Shown here: positions 22,370 through 56,917 of the stretch, one piece after another
How positions within the stretch are numbered: position 1 is the first letter of the stretch
Layout of the letters: every line of letters begins with the position of its first letter
From: Verrucomicrobiota bacterium
GTDB taxonomy: Bacteria > Verrucomicrobiota > Verrucomicrobiae > Limisphaerales > UBA11358
Reading direction: 5' to 3'
Assembly: GCA_014860005.1 (NCBI GenBank)
Contig: JACZKP010000112.1
Coordinates: forward strand, 1-64,000
DNA: 64,000 nucleotides
Notes under the pieces: model-generated
Told to the model about the DNA's origin: nothing
Databases searched by the model: none
Seen by the model: the letters and a program-made list of their open reading frames with translations, nothing else
Program-made: the position numbers and the translations under genes

Positions 22370-24748
22370 TCAATCCCTTCGCGGTTCGACGCCGTATAGA
22401 TGTCGCACCAGAAAATCCATTCGTCGCCGGATGCCATAAGGCGTTTCCGCTGACCCATGTCCGACACCTGTCATTACCACCAGATCAAAATCCTTGTCCG
22501 CCTTGATCAACGCGTTGACCACTTGCATCGTGGAAGCAGGATCAACGTTCTTGTCCAATTCACCCACAAACAACAGCAGTTTGCCCTGCAACTTGGCGGC
22601 ATCTTCCGTGTTGGAGCTTTTGACGTAAGATTCATCCAGCGGCCAGCCGAGCCATTGTTCGTTCCACCAGATTTTGTCCATGCGATTGTCATGGCAGCCG
22701 CAATCGGCCACCGCCACCGAATAAAAAGCGTGGTGATCCAGCAAGGCCCGCATCGCCGTCTGCCCCCCCGCCGATCCGCCGTAAATGCCCACGCGCTCCA
22801 AATCCATCCACGGACGGGTCTTCGCGGCGGCCCGCATCCACGCGATGCGATCTGGAAATCCGGCGTCCTGCAGATTCTTCCAGGCCATGTCTTGAAACTT
22901 CTTCCCGCGATGGTTTGTGCCCATGCCGTCCACCTGCACCACGATGAAACCTAGTTCGGCAATCGTGTGCTGGCGAAGTAGCCGCCCAAATTCCTTGGGC
23001 GCAAACGCCCCGTGCGGCCCGGCATAAACTTCTTCCACAACCGGGTACTTCTGGTTCGGATCAAAGTTCGACGGCTTGATGAGGATGCCGTGAATCTCCG
23101 TCCGGCCATCACGACCTTTGGCCACGAAGCGTTCCGGCATCGTCCAACCGGCTTCGCGCAAGGCACCGGCGTCGGCGCGTTCGAGTTCGCAAACGAGTTC
23201 GCCATTGTCGCTGCGACGCAATTCATGAACCGGCGGGTGATCCGCGCGCGACCATTTGGCGATGAAGAATTTCCCGTCCGGGGAAAACTCCACCGAGTGA
23301 TGGCCATCGCTCTGCGTGAGTTGCGCGAAACCGCTGCCGTCTAAATTCACCCGGCAGAAATGCAGATGGTACGGGTCCTCACCGGCGCGCAGACCGCCCG
23401 CCAAGAACCACACCTGCCGCGCGCTTTCATCTACTTTCACGACCCTGCGCACCACCCATTCACCAGTCGTGACCTGATGCTTCACCGTGCCCGTCGCCAC
23501 GTCATAAAGCCAGAGATGACACCAGCCATCGCGCTCACTCATCCAGAGCAGCTCACCGGTTTGGTCGAGCCATTGCCGCCAGGTCTTGTTGCTGTAATCA
23601 ACAAACGTCCGGCTGGTTTCCTCGACGACGGCGCGGGCCGCGCCATTGGCAACCGTCACGCCGATGATCCGATAAAGCTGATGCCCGCGCTGATTGTAAT
23701 CGAAATAGAACTCTTCGCTCTTCGCCGACCACCGAATGTCCAGCCGGCCGCTCTCCGTGAAAAAGTTCGGGAACAAATCGTTCGATACCGACACGACACT
23801 CTTATCCGCCACGCGAATGAGCACCGGCCGCGGCTGTGGCAGATCGTCGCCCGGCTTGAAATAATCATAGGTCTGCACCTTGGGCTGTAACTGATCGCGC
23901 GGCGACGATTCCACCAGCGTGACGACCCGCTGCCTGACCGTGCGCACGGACTGGACCACGCAACTCTGTGAATCCGGCGACCACGCCACCGGCCCGCGAT
24001 AAGGAGTCGTCTCCGTGCCGTCCTGGGTAAGCTGGGTTGCTGATCCGGATTCCTTTTCAACCAGGAGGATATTCTGGTTCGTGAATTGAATCATCCATTT
24101 GCCGTCCGGCGAATCCACCGTTCGTTCACGCCGGCGCGGTCGTTCCTCCTCACTTACCTGCTCCGCTTTGCCATCCACGACCACTTGAAGTTTCTCCGCC
24201 GTCGCCTCGAAGACTCCCAGCAGACTGCCGAACGCATCCGTGACAATCCAGACGTGGCCCGCGTACGTGTTTTGATCCCGCGTCTGGCCGGGACGCACGC
24301 GTCCATAAGATTGTCGCCGACCCTCGGTATCCACCCAGAACAACTCCACCGAATCAGTGAGTTGATTCTCGAAGCTGATGGTGGTGTTCTCGCTCGTGCG
24401 GCGCGTGGGCCGCACCACCGCGCGGCGCTGGCGCGAGGTCGAAACGGCTTCCGGCGCCGGCAGACCGAGTGACTTCGCATCGGCGGCGCGCTTGATCATC
24501 CCCGAATCGGCATCCACGAGCGCATACTCATAGTCATCCGGGCCCGTCTGCACACGATACCAAAACTGATTCGTACCCGGCAGCCAGTTGGGTCTGACGC
24601 TGGTGCGAAATATCTTCTGCTCGGTGCGGCTGGCCAGCGATTGCGCGCGATCGTAATCGGCCTTTGTACCCTGAGCCGGCAAGGCGGCGGGAGTGAGCAG
24701 GAGTGGGAGTAGGAGCAAGAATATCAGCAGGAAGTTCACCCTTTCCAT
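22370..24748 (-). CDS. Exported S9 peptidase (dipeptidyl peptidase IV-like)
   Basis: This is an exported serine peptidase of the prolyl oligopeptidase clan. It has a signal peptide (MERVNFLLIFLLLLPLLLTP), a beta-propeller domain to about residue 520, and an alpha/beta-hydrolase domain with the nucleophile in YGGSAGGQ (Ser659), the acid in FVGELDKNVDP (about Asp732) and the base in GVGHGS (about His764). Members release Xaa-Pro dipeptides or cut after proline. I chose the ATG at 24748 because it begins the signal peptide; the frame is open far upstream but runs into a repeat-filled gap. It is followed directly by the D-amino-acid dehydrogenase gene. In this cluster it would feed proline/hydroxyproline peptides into catabolism. 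Confidence 0.9.
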   Translation of the reverse strand: MERVNFLLIFLLLLPLLLTPAALPAQGTKADYDRAQSLASRTEQKIFRTSVRPNWLPGTNQFWYRVQTGPDDYEYALVDADSGMIKRAADAKSLGLPAPEAVSTSRQRRAVVRPTRRTSENTTISFENQLTDSVELFWVDTEGRRQSYGRVRPGQTRDQNTYAGHVWIVTDAFGSLLGVFEATAEKLQVVVDGKAEQVSEEERPRRRERTVDSPDGKWMIQFTNQNILLVEKESGSATQLTQDGTETTPYRGPVAWSPDSQSCVVQSVRTVRQRVVTLVESSPRDQLQPKVQTYDYFKPGDDLPQPRPVLIRVADKSVVSVSNDLFPNFFTESGRLDIRWSAKSEEFYFDYNQRGHQLYRIIGVTVANGAARAVVEETSRTFVDYSNKTWRQWLDQTGELLWMSERDGWCHLWLYDVATGTVKHQVTTGEWVVRRVVKVDESARQVWFLAGGLRAGEDPYHLHFCRVNLDGSGFAQLTQSDGHHSVEFSPDGKFFIAKWSRADHPPVHELRRSDNGELVCELERADAGALREAGWTMPERFVAKGRDGRTEIHGILIKPSNFDPNQKYPVVEEVYAGPHGAFAPKEFGRLLRQHTIAELGFIVVQVDGMGTNHRGKKFQDMAWKNLQDAGFPDRIAWMRAAAKTRPWMDLERVGIYGGSAGGQTAMRALLDHHAFYSVAVADCGCHDNRMDKIWWNEQWLGWPLDESYVKSSNTEDAAKLQGKLLLFVGELDKNVDPASTMQVVNALIKADKDFDLVVMTGVGHGSAETPYGIRRRMDFLVRHLYGVEPRRD

Positions 24749-24975
24749 GCACCTCAACGCTGGACTCCGATTTCGTACGAGGAAAGCGGCGCTAAAGTCG
24801 CTCTGGCCTGCAAGTGGTACCCTATCAACCAACCGCAGGTTACCCCGAAAGCAGGAGCAAGCCGTTGTGCGCCAATACCGGTTACTTTCATACGAAGTGG
24901 TGGCCCAAAGGGCCGGGGGATTCATGGGAAGCTTCGACCTCCGAGAACGGACGCGCAACGGGGCCATGAACCGCA

Positions 24976-25043
24976 GGAGCGCGGACAGCCTTGTCCGCGA
25001 GTTTCTCCCGTTAAGTTCGCGCGGACAAAGCTGTCCGCGCTCC
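24976..25043. repeat. Long inverted repeat, 24-base arms
   Basis: The arm at 24976-24999 pairs with 25020-25043 over 24 bases with one mismatch, around a 20-base spacer. Each arm is itself a smaller palindrome (gcggacag..ttgtccgc), so a cross-shaped structure is possible. The outer ends are ggagcgc and gcgctcc, a feature shared with other palindromes in the window. Confidence 0.8.
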
Positions 25044-25112
25044 GAAGGGCGGTTCAGGGGAAGTTTCGACGATCTGAAATCGCACATTGTGACCACGAAC
25101 TGCCGAGACAGC

Positions 25113-25185
25113 GGAGCGCCGGTCTCGGACCCGGCGCGAATCTGCGGTTGCCAACCAACACGCCGGGTCGGGATACCGGCGCTCC
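25113..25185. repeat. Inverted repeat with ggagcgccggt ends
   Basis: The arm at 25113-25136 (starting ggagcgccggt, ending ccggcg) is an imperfect reverse complement of 25161-25185 (starting cgccggg, ending accggcgctcc). The pairing has an internal bulge. It shares its outer ends with the repeat at 24976 but not its core. Confidence 0.7.
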
Positions 25186-25227
25186 GGTTCATCGAAAGGG
25201 CTGAGGTGAGGGTTGGCTTCACCACAC

Positions 25228-26151
25228 TCATAATCGTATCCCCCAACAGAATGGATCCGCGTCGTTCAAGATCAATGTCGAATCCGCGATGACAAACGCC
25301 GAGCCGCGAATGGTGGGCCGAATTTCCCCGTTCACCACGGACACCGAGCCATCGAAACAACTGCCAATGATGCTTTCCTGTCGCCACGTTTCGCCTTCCT
25401 TGATTTTGCCGTCCGTAAAAAGGCAGGCGAGCTTGGCGCTTGTTCCAGTCCCACACGGCGAACGGTCGTAAGCTTTGCCGGGGCATAGCACGAAGTTGCG
25501 CGACTGGGCGCCGGGACTTTGCGGCGGGCCGAAGAGTTCCACGTGATCCACCTCGGGAAAACCCTGTGCGTTAATTGCCTGACGAATGCGCCAGGTCAAA
25601 TCAGTCAGGCGCTCCACGTTCGCAAGCGTCAGTGGTTCGCCGGGTTGTTCAACGAGGAAAAACCAATTGCCGCCCCACGCAACATCCCCAGTGACGATGC
25701 CCACGCCCGCCACGTCCACTGAAACCGCCTTGGCCTTACGATAACTCGGCACATTGGCAACGGAAACCTCGCCGTTCTCATGCAACGTGGCGGTAACAAG
25801 GCCCACGGGCGTTTCGATGCGATGCGCGCCGGGCTTGATGCGCCCGAGATGAGCGAGCGTCACGAGGAGGCCAATTGTGCCGTGGCCGCACATGTTCAGC
25901 ACTCCGACGTTGTTGAAGAAGATGACGCCGGCCACACAGGATTTGTCCTCCGGGTCGACCAGCAGCGCACCCACAAACACATCCGAACCGCGCGGTTCAT
26001 TGACAATGGCACTGCGAAATTGGTCGAAGCCCTGCGCAAAGCGTTCCCGGCGATCCGCCAGAGGACCATTGCCCAGGTCCGGTCCGCCGCTGATCACAAC
26101 GCGCGTCGGCTCACCGCCGGTGTGGGAGTCAATGACGCGAATGGTTTTCAT
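25228..26151 (-). CDS. 4-hydroxyproline 2-epimerase (proline racemase family)
   Basis: The proline racemase family fold is clear: the start IRVIDSHTGGEPTRVV, the first catalytic Cys in NMCGHGTIGL (Cys88) and the second in DRSPCGTGTSAK (Cys233). Having Cys at both positions marks an epimerase/racemase rather than the trans-3-hydroxyproline dehydratase, which has Thr at the second site. The two-cysteine spacing fits 4-hydroxyproline epimerases, which convert trans-4-hydroxy-L-proline to cis-4-hydroxy-D-proline. Length is 307. The neighbouring DapA-family enzyme and D-amino-acid dehydrogenase are the next two steps of the hydroxyproline pathway, which is why I prefer this over proline racemase. 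Confidence 0.85.
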   Translation of the reverse strand: MKTIRVIDSHTGGEPTRVVISGGPDLGNGPLADRRERFAQGFDQFRSAIVNEPRGSDVFVGALLVDPEDKSCVAGVIFFNNVGVLNMCGHGTIGLLVTLAHLGRIKPGAHRIETPVGLVTATLHENGEVSVANVPSYRKAKAVSVDVAGVGIVTGDVAWGGNWFFLVEQPGEPLTLANVERLTDLTWRIRQAINAQGFPEVDHVELFGPPQSPGAQSRNFVLCPGKAYDRSPCGTGTSAKLACLFTDGKIKEGETWRQESIIGSCFDGSVSVVNGEIRPTIRGSAFVIADSTLILNDADPFCWGIRL

Positions 26152-48358: not shown

Positions 48359-50533
48359 TCAATATGGCAGCGCGAACCTCGCCGTCAATTCTCGCACTCG
48401 CTGCTGGACTTGCATGGCCGCCTCCGCGTTCTTGATGTCCAACAAGACCTCGCTGATCATGTCCGCGATAGCCGCCATTTCGCTCTCCTTCATGCCGCGC
48501 GTGGTCACGGCGGGAGTGCCCAGTCGGATGCCGCTGGCCTGAAACGGCGAACGCGTCTCGAAAGGAATCGTGTTCTTGTTGACCGTGATCCCTGCGGCGT
48601 CCAGCGCAATCTGGCAGTCCTTACCCGTCACGCCGCGCGCCCCCACGTCCACCAGCATCAAGTGATTATCCGTGCCGCCGCTGACAAGGCGGAAGCCGTT
48701 GCGTTTCATGCCTTCGGCCAACGCACGGGCATTACGGACGACTTGCTCCTGATACGCGCGGAACGAAGTTTGCATCGCCTCCTGAAAACAGACCGCCTTG
48801 GCCGCAATGACGTGCATCAGCGGTCCACCCTGGATGCCGGGGAAAACCTGCGAGTCAATTTCCTTGGCGTATTTCTCCTTGCACAACACCAGTCCGCCGC
48901 GTGGTCCGCGCAGCGTCTTGTGCGTGGTGGTGGTCACAAAGTCCGCATGCTCGACGGGATTGGGGTGCAATCCGGTTGCCACCAACCCGGCAATATGCGC
49001 AATGTCCGCCAGCAAATAAGCCCCCACTTCGCGTGCGATATCGCCCATGCGCTGGAAGTCAATGAGACGCGGATACGCGCTCGCACCGACCGTGATCATC
49101 TTTGGTTTGTGCTCCCGGGCCATTGCGGCGAGTTGATCGTAATCAATCCGTTCGTCCTCTTTACGGACGCCATAGTGGACAATCTCAAAAAACTTGCCGG
49201 AAAAATTCGCCTTGTTGCCATGCGTCAGATGCCCGCCATGGCTCAGGTCCATGGTCAGCATTTTGTCCCCGGGTTTTAGGAACGCGAAGTACACCGCCAT
49301 GTTTGCGCCGCTGCCGGAATGGGGCTGGACGTTGGCGTGCTCGGCACCAAAGAGTTTCCTGGCGCGGTCAATCGTCAGTTGCTCGACCACGTCCACGTTC
49401 TCACAGCCGCCATACCAGCGCTTCATCGGATAGCCCTCGGCATATTTGTTCGTGAGCACTGATCCCTGCGCTTCCATGACGGCAAGACTGGTGAAGTTCT
49501 CACTGGCAATCAGTTCGATGTTCTCCTGCTGACGAAGCCGCTCGTGCTCGATGGTGGTGGCAATGGCAGGATCAACGCTTTTCAAGCGCAACTCTGGAGG
49601 TGTGATTCGAGGTTCCATTTTTTTTACCCGTCGTTCATGGCGTCCGCCTTCAAAGCGGGCATTGAGAAAGGCGTCGAGAATTCGTTTGGCCGCATCCGGC
49701 GGCGTGGTCCTGCCAGACAAACAGAGCACGTTGGCATCGTTGTGCTGCCGAGCCAGCGTCGCGGTGACCTCGTCTGCCACGAGTGCCGCACGCACACCGG
49801 GCACTTTGTTGGCAGCGATGCTCATGCCCACACCGGTGGTGCAAATCAACAGCCCCGCCTCCGCCTGGTGCGCCGCCACACTCTGCGCAACAACTTGCGC
49901 AAAATCCGGGTAATCGGCGGGGTCCGCAGAGTGCGCGCCCAGATCGTTCACGCTGACCCCGCGTTCCTGCAAGTGCCATTTGAGCGTCTCCTTCAATGCG
50001 TAGCCGCCGTGGTCCGCGCCCACCGCCACGGTCGCAACCTTTGCACCGCCCCCGGCTGGGACACCCGCCGCCACCTGACTCTGTGCCACAAACCGCAACA
50101 GCGACGCGATGCCCTGCTCGATTTGGTCGCGGCAGTTCAGATAAACTTCATAGGAACCGCCAATGGGATCGCTGATGTCCTTTTCAAATGCGTCGAGCGT
50201 GTCGTCGAATTCGCGCAGCAGGAAGGTTTTTTCCGCCGCCGCGGGATACAACAGCGTAATCGTATCCACGTGGCTGTGGGTCATGCCGAGAATGTAATCG
50301 GCCTGTTGCACCAGTTCGGGATTGACCATCCGGCTGCGCTGCGCGGAAATATCAATCCCCAATTCCTTCATGGCTCGGACCGCATGCAAGCTGGGCGGCT
50401 GACCATCCATCGCGCCCAAGCCGGCCGACAGCACGCGGTAATCTCCCCGGCCCGCGACGGCGTGACGAAAAAGCCCCTCGGCCATCGGGCTGCGGCAGAT
50501 ATTCCCAGTGCAGACAAACAGAAAGGTCTTCAT
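48359..50533 (-). CDS. glyA: Fusion: low-molecular-weight phosphatase / RpiB / serine hydroxymethyltransferase
   Basis: One uninterrupted frame of 724 codons carries three complete enzymes. Residues 1-150 are a low-molecular-weight protein tyrosine (or arginine) phosphatase with the P-loop [10 protein letters not shown] (Cys8, Arg14) and Asp122 in DISDPIG. Residues 165-305 are ribose-5-phosphate isomerase B, with [12 protein letters not shown] and [19 protein letters not shown]. Residues 306-724 are GlyA of normal length (419), with the PLP lysine Lys539 in [14 protein letters not shown]. The RpiB C-terminus ([12 protein letters not shown]) runs straight into the GlyA start Met306 with no linker. 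The junction DNA holds eight A, a slippage-prone site. The same three functions are separate adjacent genes in Bacillus (ywlE, rpiB, glyA). Confidence 0.9.
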
Positions 50534-51967: not shown

Positions 51968-54670
51968 ATGAAAACTCTAACCCTCCGTTCCGCCATGGTC
52001 GCGTGTCTGACGCTGCCGGCACTATTGCCCCTGTCGGGCCACGCTGATTATTCGTCCGCAGTGCTGAGTGACGGACCGCGTGCGTATTATCGGCTCAACG
52101 ACGACACCAGCCGGTCCAATATCAACAAAAACAGTGGAAGCATCGGCGCCGCTGGCGACCTTGAAAACACTTCCACCTTGAAGGCCTTTCCCGGTGCGCT
52201 GGTCGGAAGCGGAAACCGGTCACAGTTTTTTGATACCGGAACGGCGTACGGAATGATCCCTTTCAATGCGGCCCTTAATCCCGACAATACCCAGCCGTTC
52301 ACCATTGAAGTCTGGTTCTATCCGGCCAGTGACCAGATCAACGCCGGGCAATGTCCGATCAACAATCGCGTTTCTTCCGGTTTCCCCGACCGGACTGGTT
52401 GGGTCTTCTTCCAGCGAGCGCCGAGCGCCGCTTATGCCGGGACGCCGGGGTACGAAGGCGTGGGTTGGAATTGCAGATTCTACCGTGGCAGCGGCGGCAG
52501 CAGCGGCTTGGATATCACCAGTGATATGCCGTATCAGGTTGGCAAGTGGACGCATGTCGTGGTGGTTTATGATCCCGTGCAACTGACGAATTCCACGGCG
52601 ACCATTTACATTGATGGCGTAGCCGCGAATACGAACGTTTGGAACGGCGGTCCCGATGGAATGTCTCCGGGTTATGCCGCGAACCCGGCGGAAACGGACG
52701 CCGCCCTGTCACTCGGCGCCTACAACAACACCAGCGGCGCCGGGGGCAATCCGTATTTTGGCGGCATGGATGAATTCGCGTTTTACGCCGCCAAGCTGAC
52801 GCCGGAGCAAATTCTAGCGCACTACCAGAATGGTACGAACGCCAATCGCACCACGCCCTACGAGACGCTCATCCAATCGCGCAACCCGGTGGTCCACTTG
52901 CGGCTCGACGAGTTGTCGCTCACGCCAAGAACAGCCATCAACCTGGGCGATACACGCGCCACCGGCAATGCGACTCACTCGGATGAGGTGCGTTACCCCG
53001 CCCCCAGCGCACTCGCCAGCAGGACCGATGACGGTGCCGTCGCTTATCACCTCCGCAACGGCTATGGTGTTACCACGCTCCCTTGGATGGCGGAAAACAA
53101 TCCGCCCGCCGGGGTGCCGTTTACTTTCGAAACCTGGCTGCGCCCGATGCGGGATCAACAGGGCGGGCAGTGCCCGATCAATAACCGTTGGGTGGGCGGT
53201 AGCGGCCGGACCGGTTGGGTCATTTTTCAACGCAACCCAAACCTAACCTACCCTGCCAGCGAGGGTCATGGCTGGAATTTCCGGATGTTCAGCGGCGTAG
53301 GCGGTGGCGGCCAGGATGTCGTAACCGGCACTGACTATACCGTGGGCAAATGGCAGCATCTGGTTGTCACTTGGGAACCTCAAGTGGACAATGGCGATCC
53401 CGGTGGCAATGGAAATAACCAGTGGCAAGGCATTCTGACCGCGTATGTTGATGGTGTCGTGGTGGCATCCAACCCTTCGGCCCTCTACTCCGCCAATCGT
53501 GAGATCACCGAAACCGGGGCCACAGCCGCCGACCTGGGTATCGGCTCTTACAATGCCGCTTCCGGCCTGGGCCAGAATCCTTACGAGGGCGACATTGACG
53601 AGTTGGCGATTTACAACAATTACGTCCTGACCCCCGACCAAATCCTGGCGCACTATGAAACCGGGATAGGTGCCCGCTCGGGCACCAATTACGAGACGTT
53701 GGTGCTGACCGCGGCGGACGATGGCATTGGCACCCAAAGGTTGGGGCCAAAAACGTATCTTCGCTTCAGCGATCCGGCCGACTTTCCGGTGGCCAACCGC
53801 GGCACGGGCGGCGACTTGGCCGACGGAAGCCTGGTCCTCACCACCACCGCCGCCGAAGGGCCGCGTTCCCCAACGTATGCGGGTTTCGAGAGCTTAAATA
53901 ATGCAGTTTCGTTCGATGGTCTGAAGAGTTGGGGCAGCCTGAACAACCCGCCCAGTCTGAACATTGCCGGCGAGATAACCCTGGAAGCGTGGATCAAACC
54001 CGATGCCTCGCAAGGCGATCCCGCGCGCATCATCTCCCACGGACCGGCGGTGCCCAGCAACTTCCTGATTCAGTTTCCAATTCCTGACAACGCGGTGACA
54101 AACAGTTCAGAGGTGTTCCTGCGAATTGATGGCGGCGCGAACTACGTGGTTGGCTCGATCGAGGTCATCTACACCAACCTCTTTGAAGTCAGCAGCAACA
54201 TGTACAGCGCCAGCTTCCCCATCCCGACGGGCGATTTGGGCGGCGGCCAGTGGGTGCATCTGGTGGGCACTTACGACGGCACGCACTGGAAGCTGTATCG
54301 CAACGGCACTGAGGTTGCCAGTGAACCGGCTGCCGTCGGCGCGCTTGCCGAGGATAACGCGGATTGGGCTATCGGCTCTGCTGGCAACGGCTGGGCGGAT
54401 TACTACACCGGAGCCATTGACGAAGTAGCCATCTACGCCCACGCGCTGACCCCGGCACAAGTGGCAGCTCACTATCTGGCGGGCACGGCCGTCACGTCAC
54501 CCATCTCCATCACCCGTTCTGGCGGCAACGTGACTATCACGTGGCCGGCAGGCACGACGCTGCAGGAAGCAACCGTCGTTTCAGGGCCGTACACCGATGT
54601 CACGGGTTCCCCCGTTTCACCGCTGACGATCCCGGCCACCGGGACAAAATATTATCGCTGGCGGCAATAG
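51968..54670 (+). CDS. Exported protein with three LamG domains
   Basis: The 900-residue protein has a signal peptide (cleavage near LSGHA) and three concanavalin-like LamG domains of about 220-270 residues each. Repeated markers are AVLSDGPRAYYRLND, then FTIEVWFYPASD, FTFETWLRPMRDQ and ITLEAWIKPDA at the start of a long strand pair, and AIDEVAIYAHALTPAQVAAH near the ends. A short beta domain closes it (ITRSGGNVTITWPAGTT and KYYRWRQ). Such proteins are very common in Verrucomicrobia and probably bind extracellular polysaccharide. No catalytic site is seen. A LamG domain of the same kind is present in the next gene. Confidence 0.85.
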   Translation: MKTLTLRSAMVACLTLPALLPLSGHADYSSAVLSDGPRAYYRLNDDTSRSNINKNSGSIGAAGDLENTSTLKAFPGALVGSGNRSQFFDTGTAYGMIPFNAALNPDNTQPFTIEVWFYPASDQINAGQCPINNRVSSGFPDRTGWVFFQRAPSAAYAGTPGYEGVGWNCRFYRGSGGSSGLDITSDMPYQVGKWTHVVVVYDPVQLTNSTATIYIDGVAANTNVWNGGPDGMSPGYAANPAETDAALSLGAYNNTSGAGGNPYFGGMDEFAFYAAKLTPEQILAHYQNGTNANRTTPYETLIQSRNPVVHLRLDELSLTPRTAINLGDTRATGNATHSDEVRYPAPSALASRTDDGAVAYHLRNGYGVTTLPWMAENNPPAGVPFTFETWLRPMRDQQGGQCPINNRWVGGSGRTGWVIFQRNPNLTYPASEGHGWNFRMFSGVGGGGQDVVTGTDYTVGKWQHLVVTWEPQVDNGDPGGNGNNQWQGILTAYVDGVVVASNPSALYSANREITETGATAADLGIGSYNAASGLGQNPYEGDIDELAIYNNYVLTPDQILAHYETGIGARSGTNYETLVLTAADDGIGTQRLGPKTYLRFSDPADFPVANRGTGGDLADGSLVLTTTAAEGPRSPTYAGFESLNNAVSFDGLKSWGSLNNPPSLNIAGEITLEAWIKPDASQGDPARIISHGPAVPSNFLIQFPIPDNAVTNSSEVFLRIDGGANYVVGSIEVIYTNLFEVSSNMYSASFPIPTGDLGGGQWVHLVGTYDGTHWKLYRNGTEVASEPAAVGALAEDNADWAIGSAGNGWADYYTGAIDEVAIYAHALTPAQVAAHYLAGTAVTSPISITRSGGNVTITWPAGTTLQEATVVSGPYTDVTGSPVSPLTIPATGTKYYRWRQ

Positions 54671-54759: not shown

Positions 54760-56703
54760 ATGAAACCTTCAAGAACCTCCGTCGCGGGCATCCATCCATT
54801 CACCCTGTCCCAAAGCGAGCAGCGGCGGCAAGCTGGCGTCCGTTCGCAGGCCGGGCACGATGCGCGGGGCCGCGGAGGCTGCTTCCAGGGCTTCACTCTT
54901 ATCGAACTGCTCGTGGTGATTGCGATCATTGCGATTCTGGCGGGGATGTTGTTGCCGGCGCTGGCCAAGGCTAACACCAAGGCCCAAGGCAGATTTTCCC
55001 TGGCGCATGCATACCACGAGGTTGACGCTGCTGCGCGCAATCCCACCGGTTACGCGCAGGTGATGGAGGAGATAACGGTGGTTCCTCCCGCCGCGACCGG
55101 CTTGGTCGGCTATTGGGCGATGGACGAGGGCGCTCCCAACACGCTGACGATGGATGCTTCCGGCAACGCCAACCACGGCACGCTGGTTGGCGGACCTGTC
55201 TGGAGCAGCGGGCAGATCGGTGCGGGCAGCCTGATGTTTGACGGGGTGAACGACTATGTGCAGGTCGGGGCGCGCGCGAGCCTCGTTATGTCCGCGAGCA
55301 TGACAATGAGCGCGTGGATTTATCCGACTGGCGCAGGCGGAATCATCGTGAACAAGGAAGGGGAATACGAAATTGGAGTTATCAACGGAACCGTCCAATG
55401 GGCCATCGCCGATACCGTTCCGACCTGGGCCTGGAGAAACAGCGGCTATGCTCCGCCGCTGAACAGATGGAGCCATATCGCCGTGGTGTACAGCCAGGGA
55501 GTGGTGCAGACCTATGCCAATGGCACCCTCTTTCACACATACCCCGGATCGGGAACCATCGGGGACGTAGCAACCTCGATGAACGATTTCCGGGTCGGCG
55601 GGCGTCAAGCAGCGGTTCAGCATTTTGCGGGAAAGATTGACGAAGTGCGGATGTATAACCGCGCCTTGAGTGCGGGCGAAGTTGCCGGGCTGGCGGGCAC
55701 GTCCTGCCAGTATGTCTATGGATTGGACCTCGTCAGCCAGAAGCGCGGCAGCACCGTGCGGTATTACGGTTACGACGGGTTGGGCAGTGTGCGTTACCTG
55801 ACGGATGCGAGCGGCGCGGTGACGGACACCTACACGTATGATGCCTTTGGAATCCTGATTGGCCAGACACCATCCAGCGGACAGACCCTGAATAACTACC
55901 GCTACACCGGCGAACAATGGGATGAGCACTTGGGGATGTACTACCTGCGTGCCCGTTACTACAAACCGGAACTGGGCCGCTTCTGGACCATGGACAGTTA
56001 TGAGGGGAATAACTCAGATCCATTGAGCCTCCACAAATACCTCTATGCGCATGCTAGCCCGGTGAACAACACGGATCCAACCGGAAATGAGACGTTGATT
56101 GGAATTTTTATCGCTTCCACAATTAGCGTGGGGCTTCACGGTCAATACGACGCTGGCGTTTCGGTTGTCGGAAACTCGCTAAAGAACATCATCATTGGCG
56201 TGTATTCGGGAATGTCGGTCAACCAAATCCTCCTGCTGAACTTCTTGGATAACGCGGGAGGCGTGGTTGTTGGCAAAGCTCTCGGGAAGCTTGCACAACT
56301 GCGCCGGCTCCCAGGTGTTGTGAAGGGCGTTGGCAAGGTGATTCAAGGCGACCGCTGGCTTAGAGGCTCGCAAGGCAACGCTGGTTTTGTTCCAGCGCAA
56401 ATTGCCCAACGGCTCGCTGGTCGAAATTTCAAGAACTTCGATAGATTTAGAGAGGCGTTTTGGCGGGAAGTGGCGGCGGACGCCAACTTGTCGAAGGGCT
56501 TCACGTTCGACGACCTCGTGGCAATGCGAAAGGGAAATGCCCCGGCTGTTGATGTGACACAAAGGGTCGGAAAGAAAGTTAGCTACGAACTTCACCACGC
56601 TACGCCTATCCAGCATGGCGGTGACGTTTACGACCTCGACAACATCATCGTCGTAACACCACGCTACCACCAAGAGGTTTTGGAGAAAGCGTATCACTAC
56701 TGA
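54760..56703 (+). CDS. Prepilin leader - LamG - RHS core - colicin-type DNase toxin
   Basis: The 647-residue protein has a leader of 44 residues ending in Gly44, then FTLIELLVVIAIIAILAGML (cleavage Gly44/Phe45, Glu49 at position +5), a type IV prepilin/pseudopilin signal. Residues about 93-104 read RNPTGYAQVMEE, an RHS segment, and a LamG domain (about 112-312) then interrupts the RHS sequence. The RHS core resumes at YVYGLDLVSQ (319) and DGLGSVRYLTDASGAVTDTY and ends HASPVNNTDPTG (442). Residues about 540-647 form an HNH DNase like colicin E9/pyocin S: VPAQIAQRLAGRNFKNFDRF, then REAFWREVA, VSYELHHATPIQHGG, VYDLDNIIVVTPRYHQ. Glu610, His612, His613, Asn628 and His637 match the catalytic set; the last metal His is Leu641. 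An immunity gene follows. Confidence 0.85.
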   Translation: MKPSRTSVAGIHPFTLSQSEQRRQAGVRSQAGHDARGRGGCFQGFTLIELLVVIAIIAILAGMLLPALAKANTKAQGRFSLAHAYHEVDAAARNPTGYAQVMEEITVVPPAATGLVGYWAMDEGAPNTLTMDASGNANHGTLVGGPVWSSGQIGAGSLMFDGVNDYVQVGARASLVMSASMTMSAWIYPTGAGGIIVNKEGEYEIGVINGTVQWAIADTVPTWAWRNSGYAPPLNRWSHIAVVYSQGVVQTYANGTLFHTYPGSGTIGDVATSMNDFRVGGRQAAVQHFAGKIDEVRMYNRALSAGEVAGLAGTSCQYVYGLDLVSQKRGSTVRYYGYDGLGSVRYLTDASGAVTDTYTYDAFGILIGQTPSSGQTLNNYRYTGEQWDEHLGMYYLRARYYKPELGRFWTMDSYEGNNSDPLSLHKYLYAHASPVNNTDPTGNETLIGIFIASTISVGLHGQYDAGVSVVGNSLKNIIIGVYSGMSVNQILLLNFLDNAGGVVVGKALGKLAQLRRLPGVVKGVGKVIQGDRWLRGSQGNAGFVPAQIAQRLAGRNFKNFDRFREAFWREVAADANLSKGFTFDDLVAMRKGNAPAVDVTQRVGKKVSYELHHATPIQHGGDVYDLDNIIVVTPRYHQEVLEKAYHY

Positions 56704-56713
56704 GGCAACGATT

Positions 56714-56917
56714 ATGACAGACGCTGAAATTATTGCACTGCTCGACCGGATTTTGAGCGGGGATCGCCCTGACGACGAGTTCGGAGAATGGATTGAAAGG
56801 CTTGAGCGAGCGACGCGATGCCCGAACATCCTCAATCTCATCAAGTATCGAACTCCGGAGGAAACATCCGAAACCATTCTCCGCAAGGCGCGCGAGTATC
56901 GGCCCATCCAACTCTGA
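56714..56917 (+). CDS. Im9-like immunity protein to the preceding DNase
   Basis: The 67-residue acidic protein begins MTDAEIIALLDRILSGDRPD and contains LERATRCPNILNLIKYRTPE and a final ILRKAREYR. The order (helix 1 with AEIIALLDRIL, helix 2 with EFGEWIERLERAT, a CPN turn, a short helix 3 with LIKY, helix 4 ending in YR) fits the four-helix colicin/pyocin immunity fold, where the equivalent region reads EHPSGSDLIYYP and the last helix ends QWR. One of the two usual tyrosines is Lys here, and the protein is about 20 residues shorter than Im9. It starts 10 bases after the toxin stop. It should block the DNase in the producing cell. Confidence 0.75.
   Translation: MTDAEIIALLDRILSGDRPDDEFGEWIERLERATRCPNILNLIKYRTPEETSETILRKAREYRPIQL

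What the first reader, a model, noticed from the sequence alone, without database searches (positions are those of the whole stretch)
54760..56917. Prepilin-leader RHS protein ending in a colicin E9/pyocin-type DNase, with its own immunity gene
The protein carries an intact prepilin cleavage site (Gly44/Phe45, Glu at +5), an RHS core, and a C-terminal HNH domain with the E-L-H-H, D-N and P-R-x-H positions of colicin DNases. The next gene, 10 bases on, has the four-helix outline of Im9-type immunity proteins. RHS toxins are normally 1000-2000 residues and travel through type VI or Sec/TcB-like routes; this one is 647 residues with a pilin-type export signal. That points to delivery through a type II secretion or type IV pilus machine. 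Family assignments follow known motifs; the delivery route is inference.
Basis: partly seen in the sequence, partly recalled or inferred. Interest (0 to 1): 0.9.

Follow-up and report, generated by a model that had tools for sequence, protein, structure and literature searches.

The report
Pilin-leader Rhs toxin with immunity gene
A bacterial DNA-cutting toxin of the colicin type, with its protective partner gene next to it, sits on a short stump of an Rhs delivery protein whose front end has been replaced by the export tag of a pilus protein; several short stumps in related bacteria carry a different, ordinary secretion-type tag.

Summary
ORF 54760-56703 (647 aa) is open throughout, with a prepilin leader (G44/F45, E49), an Rhs core and a colicin/pyocin DNase (PF21431, 129 bits). 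The next ORF is a short Im-type immunity protein: conserved family, four predicted helices, best structural matches all DNase-immunity proteins. A 5'-truncated Rhs tip thus gained a prepilin leader. No second prepilin-Rhs fusion was found (0 of 62 short tips; none in two capped lists of 120 hits). By a simple hydropathy rule, 17 of 28 short tips of the related order carry an export-type leader (14 of 14 with strong cores, a cut set afterwards; 3 of 14 others), against 2 of 14 from other groups and 120 of 1806 control segments. Leader capture by orphan Rhs tips looks recurrent there; the prepilin leader is a rare variant. Delivery by a pseudopilus is untested; accidental fusion is the main rival. 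One metal-binding histidine of E9 (recalled) is Leu here.

The parts
54760..54891 (+). prepilin leader peptide, residues 1-44, ending G44
   Evidence: N_methyl and IV_pilin_GFxxxE over cut-off at 43-65; sequence shows G44/F45, E49
54892..54999 (+). pilin N-terminal hydrophobic helix, residues 45-80
   Evidence: helix 47-73 in the full-length model; hydropathy maximum 3.76 in the first 110 residues
55000..55035 (+). junction between pilin leader and Rhs fragment, residues 81-92
   Evidence: identity with the Rhs protein P0009 begins at residue 93
55036..55080 (+). Rhs fragment NPTGYAQVMEE, residues 93-107
   Evidence: same motif preceded by Rhs sequence in P0002, P0008, P0009, P0034 and others
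55240..55686 (+). LamG / concanavalin-like domain, residues 161-309
   Evidence: PF13385 105.5 bits; best-predicted part of the model
55705..56088 (+). Rhs-associated core, residues 316-443, ending in DPTGN
   Evidence: TIGR03696 68.4 bits at 360-442
56089..56298 (+). pre-toxin linker, residues 444-513; the GC3 drop begins here
   Evidence: conserved with P0003 and P0008; GC3 0.60 against 0.70 in the Rhs core
56299..56703 (+). colicin/pyocin-type DNase domain, residues 514-647 and stop
   Evidence: PF21431 129.2 bits; PDB colicin E9 and pyocin S2
56714..56917 (+). 67-residue Im9-type immunity protein

Best explanation
This is a mosaic 'mini-Rhs' antibacterial toxin. A DNase-immunity cassette lies behind a truncated Rhs tip that has lost its shell and gained a new export leader, here a prepilin leader. 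Shown by sequence: the mosaic, an intact prepilin signal, the DNase homology and the immunity family. Suggested by a simple count: export-type leaders recur on short Rhs tips in the related order. Inferred: the leader puts the protein in the inner membrane, prepilin peptidase cuts after G44, and the protein is held or pushed outward by a T2SS/type IV pilus-type pseudopilus with LamG facing outward. The DNase then harms neighbouring cells while the Im protein protects the producer's cytoplasm.
For: One open 647-aa frame with GC3 0.71-0.73 through leader, junction and LamG, 0.70 in the Rhs core and 0.60 from the linker to the DNase and immunity gene. Residues 93-455 are 58% identical to P0009, which then has a different end. 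The DNase is found on other heads: P0003 (70% over 324 residues; its start reads by eye as a Sec-type signal) and P0008 (78% over 267). Hydrophobic leaders on 17 of 28 short order tips (14 of 14 with core score >=90, 3 of 14 with 45-90), against 2 of 14 tips from other groups and 120 of 1806 control segments; a stricter Sec rule gave 14 of 40 order tips, 0 of 16 tips from other groups and 38 of 1120 controls. Leader-headed tips lie behind an Rhs gene in two loci. Prepilin peptidase, T2SSF and secretin families in 11 of 11 related genomes. Im protein.
Against: The prepilin-Rhs combination is a single case. No promoter-like site was found around the gene (0, with 1.0 expected from shuffles). Order tips with weaker cores show leaders in only 3 of 14, the score cut of 90 was chosen after seeing the list, four of the 14 come from one genome (G085), and 341 of 1400 shuffled leaders also pass. 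The full-length model is poor in the Rhs and DNase parts, so folding of the stump is untested. The third metal histidine of E9 (recalled) is Leu641. The window was not searched in full for secretion machinery; among the 11 ORFs scanned with Pfam, SecA was the only part of an export system.
Confidence: 0.5

Rival explanations
1. A recent accidental fusion: an orphan Rhs toxin cassette landed in frame behind a pilin gene start. The toxin part is a silent reservoir or on its way to decay; only the immunity gene may matter.
For: Single case. Related genomes carry dozens of prepilin ORFs (the list is cut short), giving many donors. Other database hits show a prepilin leader at the start of long proteins with other domains (P0175, P0229). 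Orphan CDI toxin modules mostly lack translation starts and are proposed as reservoirs (PMC3150448, passages).
Against: The frame is intact with native-like codon bias. The leader scores over both prepilin cut-offs. Export-type leaders recur on short tips.
Confidence: 0.3
2. The toxin works inside the producer as a toxin-antitoxin-like pair and is not delivered.
For: Main and orphan Rhs toxins with their immunity proteins act as type II TA modules in Salmonella (PMC7043789, abstract and passages).
Against: An export leader would remove the DNase from the cytoplasm (inference).
Confidence: 0.08
3. A pilin-displayed LamG adhesin with an inert DNase tail.
For: LamG is the best-predicted part. The third metal histidine of E9 (recalled) is replaced by Leu641, as in P0003 and P0007.
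Against: The rest of the active site is kept, Rhs core plus toxin are 70-78% identical to relatives, and an immunity gene follows.
Confidence: 0.08
4. An assembly chimera.
For: The database holds one member sequence on one contig. Pilin leaders are highly repeated in related genomes.
Against: Inference: a mis-join inside the leader repeat would exchange what lies upstream, but could not create a leader-to-Rhs junction, which is in frame.
Confidence: 0.04

Closest known systems
Colicin E9/E7 and pyocin S2 DNase with Im proteins
   Same: DNase domain (PF21431, E 1.3e-37) and adjacent Im-fold immunity gene
   Different: No colicin receptor-binding or translocation domain among Pfam matches at E<=1; immunity protein 67 aa where the solved Im chains listed have about 80-95; position of E9 H131 (recalled) is Leu641
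Rhs polymorphic toxins, Tox-ColE7/Imm-ColE7 class of Zhang et al. 2012 (PMC3482391, passages)
   Same: Rhs core, DP[ST]G boundary, swapped C-terminal toxin; the table there pairs Tox-ColE7 with RHS repeats and also lists Sec-dependent export of RHS toxins, so a Sec leader is not a new route
   Different: Shell missing; prepilin leader. 'pilin' occurs 0 times in the main text held (first 300,000 of 357,715 characters); Verrucomicrobia are not listed for Tox-ColE7 in the passage seen
Orphan CT/immunity modules (PMC3150448, passages)
   Same: 5'-truncated tip with immunity gene; in relatives placed behind an Rhs gene (L088, L090)
   Different: The CDI orphans there mostly lack a translation start, and the one studied lacks a signal sequence; this one has both
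VPA1263 T6SS DNase effector (PMC9602870, passages)
   Same: Homologous C-terminal DNase (NF047924, 97.3 bits over residues 516-639)
   Different: MIX/T6SS delivery; the window protein is far below that model's cut-off of 900
Kil Tad-like contact-killing apparatus of Myxococcus (PMC8460266, passages)
   Same: Pilin-type machine required for killing by contact
   Different: No toxin-pilin fusion in the passages seen; [quoted passage not shown]

Membership tests
Colicin/pyocin DNase (PF21431) | Profile score over the curated cut-off | tested here: met
   129.2 bits against 27
Colicin/pyocin DNase (PF21431) | Core HNH residues (E-L-H-H, N, H) | tested here: met
   E610 L611 H612 H613, N628, H637
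Canonical three-histidine metal site of colicin E9 (sub-feature, positions recalled) | Histidine four residues after H637 (E9 H131, recalled) | tested here: not met
   L641 in the window, L also in P0003 and P0007; His kept in P0031; nearest later His in the window is H646
Im-type immunity (PF01320) | Own score over the curated cut-off | tested here: not met
   14.8 bits against 21.2; so it is filed as Im-like, on family and fold. 8 of 12 family members match at E<=1, best 5.5e-5; the protein database's precomputed list does give PF01320 for it
Im-type immunity (PF01320) | Four-helix Im fold with short helix III | tested here: met
Type IV prepilin | Class III leader: G-1, hydrophobic helix, E+5 | tested here: met
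Type IV prepilin | Pilin globular domain after the helix | tested here: inconclusive
   No pilin C-terminal family among Pfam or NCBIfam matches; LamG-Rhs follows instead
Rhs toxin | Rhs-associated core before the toxin | tested here: met
   TIGR03696 68.4 against 32.5
Rhs toxin | Long YD-repeat shell enclosing the toxin | tested here: not met
   Only residues 93-107 and about 316-443 are Rhs; not filed as a full Rhs toxin
Orphan CT/immunity module | Lacks translation start and export signal | tested here: not met
   ATG at 54760 and an intact prepilin leader
T2SS/type IV pilus substrate | Processed and assembled by the machine | not testable with these tools
   Machine families present in 11 of 11 relatives; own genome not held

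The most novel reading that the evidence does not exclude
Polymorphic toxins can be delivered as pseudopilins. In this order of Verrucomicrobiota, orphan Rhs toxin cassettes are routinely reactivated by capturing export leaders, and one captured a prepilin leader, so that a colicin-type DNase is mounted on a type IV pilus/T2SS pseudopilus and presented to neighbours through its LamG lectin-like domain.
Probability: 0.18. Interest if true: 0.85.

Novelty: new variant of a known kind. Interest (0 to 1): 0.55.

Why it matters
If the leader works, it adds a delivery entry that does not appear in the held main text of the standard catalogue of polymorphic-toxin export routes, and gives a simple gene to test whether a pilin machine can present a toxin. 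Independently of that, short Rhs tips with their own export leaders in this order suggest that 'orphan' cassettes, described elsewhere as mostly lacking translation starts (CDI orphans), can be expressed secreted toxins. That is directly testable.

Tried and rejected
Search for a second prepilin-Rhs fusion: database search with residues 38-130 (best 120 of 4768 listed; only the window's own protein showed an Rhs motif) and leaders of 62 short tips (none by a motif). Five long prepilin ORFs of two relatives (G001, G003), picked by length, read by eye as ordinary pilins.

DNase query: 0 of 320 genomes of the order (the tool warns that an empty answer alone shows little). PF21431 over 387 genomes of the phylum: 2 match at E<=0.001, 1 over cut-off (L125, an Rhs-type protein followed by a 75-aa ORF that looks Im-like by eye, not tested); of 14 control genomes only E. 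coli rings. Viral contigs: 12 pattern matches, none confirmed.

Full-length AlphaFold model: mean pLDDT 58, residues 601-647 below 50, so it cannot speak on the metal site. Its Foldseek list is led by an arabinanase carbohydrate-binding domain and holds lectin-like jelly rolls, many of them binding domains of clostridial toxins, at low TM. I take this as a generic LamG-type fold and draw nothing from it.

The first leader count, with a too strict Rhs pattern, was discarded and replaced. Of 129 distinct Rhs-core ORFs there, 63 are cut at the 5' edge and 4 are long; these were not counted as tips, and the 43 of them with core start >=450 and score >=45 served as controls. Searches also drop tips with core score under 45 (62 to 56), and those with core start >=250 (56 to 42). 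L082, one of the 14, lies in a gene with a stop inside. Shuffled leaders reach the threshold in 341 of 1400, so composition explains part of the signal. Neither rule is a trained signal-peptide predictor.

Paper searches: 'polymorphic toxin'+'RHS'+'prepilin' gave 0 papers; 'prepilin'+'polymorphic toxin' gave 1. Searches were read as listings only, apart from the five papers opened for passages.

Full report
What is there. The window holds a 647-codon ORF at 54760-56703 and a 67-codon ORF at 56714-56917, ten bases apart. Pfam and NCBIfam place, in order, a prepilin leader (N_methyl 43-65, IV_pilin 43-64), a LamG domain (161-309), the Rhs-associated core (360-442) and a colicin/pyocin DNase (519-640), all over their curated cut-offs. 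The closest solved structures for the end are colicin E9 and pyocin S2. A motif scan of all six frames of the 64 kb finds no other prepilin-like sequence and no other convincing Rhs motif.

The mosaic. Three borders can be read from relatives. (a) P0009 is an Rhs protein 58% identical to residues 93-455, LamG included. Its sequence before RNPTGYAQVMEE is Rhs, where the window has the pilin leader, and after DPSG it soon diverges into another end. (b) P0003 (359 aa) shares Rhs core, linker and DNase at 70% over 324 residues, but starts with what reads by eye as a Sec-type signal. P0008 shares 78% over 267 residues (its end is cut), and P0007 has the same DNase on a longer Rhs stretch. (c) Third-position GC is 0.70-0.73 from the leader to the Rhs core and 0.60 from the linker through DNase and immunity gene. 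So a compositionally distinct toxin-immunity cassette sits on a LamG-Rhs tip, and that tip on a pilin start.

A departure in the DNase. The usual residues up to H637 are kept. From memory, E9 has a third metal histidine four residues on; here that position is Leu641, as in P0003 and P0007, while P0031 keeps a histidine. The window, P0003 and P0007 share a tail with AYHY whose histidine might substitute. The structure model could not test this.

Is the leader meaningful? The nearest Rhs relatives in named genomes are from Verrucomicrobia subdivision 3 (L001); the window's own organism is not told. In 293 genomes of L001's order, 127 have an Rhs-core match at 1e-8, with many short open frames. 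I fetched 40 regions picked by eye from that (cut) list and pooled them with the loci held. Of 129 distinct Rhs-core ORFs, 62 were short and not cut at the 5' side; none had a prepilin motif. Many had a hydrophobic leader followed directly by a scrap of Rhs. With a 10-residue hydropathy rule on 42 tips, 14 of 14 order tips with core score >=90 pass (nine genomes, four of the 14 from G085), 3 of 14 order tips with weaker cores, 2 of 14 tips from other groups (L015 and L018, near-identical), 120 of 1806 length-matched segments of 43 long Rhs ORFs, and 341 of 1400 shuffled leaders. A stricter Sec rule on 56 tips gave 14 of 40 order tips, 0 of 16 others, and 38 of 1120 controls. The score cut was set after looking, and neither rule is a trained predictor. 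L088 shows an Rhs gene, another ORF and then a leader-headed tip; L090 shows an Rhs end followed by two leader-headed tips.

Machinery. Prepilin peptidase (PF06750), T2SSF (PF00482) and secretin (PF00263) are over cut-off in 11 of 11 related genomes searched. Whether the window's organism has them is unknown.

Mechanism. Most likely the gene makes an exported mini-Rhs toxin whose leader was captured from a pilin gene. The prepilin pathway would insert it with the DNase outside the cytoplasm, prepilin peptidase would cut at G44/F45, and a pseudopilus could hold or extend it. Everything from insertion onward is inference. An accidental, silent fusion is the strongest rival, because the combination was seen once and pilin starts are very common in related genomes.

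Literature. Orphan CDI modules mostly lack translation starts, and the one studied also lacks a signal sequence (PMC3150448, passages). Orphan Rhs toxins can act as TA modules (PMC7043789, abstract and passages). A homologous DNase kills as a T6SS effector (PMC9602870, passages). A Tad-like pilin machine is required for contact killing of prey in Myxococcus, with toxin secretion left open (PMC8460266, passages). The catalogue of polymorphic toxins pairs RHS with Tox-ColE7 and with Sec-dependent export, but 'pilin' does not occur in its held text (PMC3482391, passages). Searches showed no paper in this library whose subject is a prepilin leader on an Rhs toxin.

Noticed in passing
window 48359-50533 (-): One 724-aa ORF joins a low-molecular-weight phosphotyrosine phosphatase, a ribose-5-phosphate isomerase B-type domain and a serine hydroxymethyltransferase.
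   Followed up: partly
window 22370-25486 (-): DPP IV-type peptidase with a match to the VHL beta domain (PF01847, 4e-8) between residues 366 and 418.
   Followed up: no
window 51968-54670 (+): Upstream neighbour is a 900-aa protein with three LamG stretches; BLASTP found no similarity at E<=1e-3 to the toxin gene's protein.
   Followed up: partly
L090 (1-4601), L088 (1-4601): An Rhs gene followed by short Rhs tips with hydrophobic leaders and small ORFs between them; candidate secreted orphan toxins with varied C-termini.
   Followed up: partly
P0003 (protein): The Rhs core of this short DNase protein with a Sec-like start is degenerate while its toxin is well conserved, as if the core were free to decay once the shell is gone.
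   Followed up: no
window 54769-55929 (-): A 386-aa open frame lies antisense to the toxin gene; probably a by-product of GC-rich codon use.
   Followed up: no
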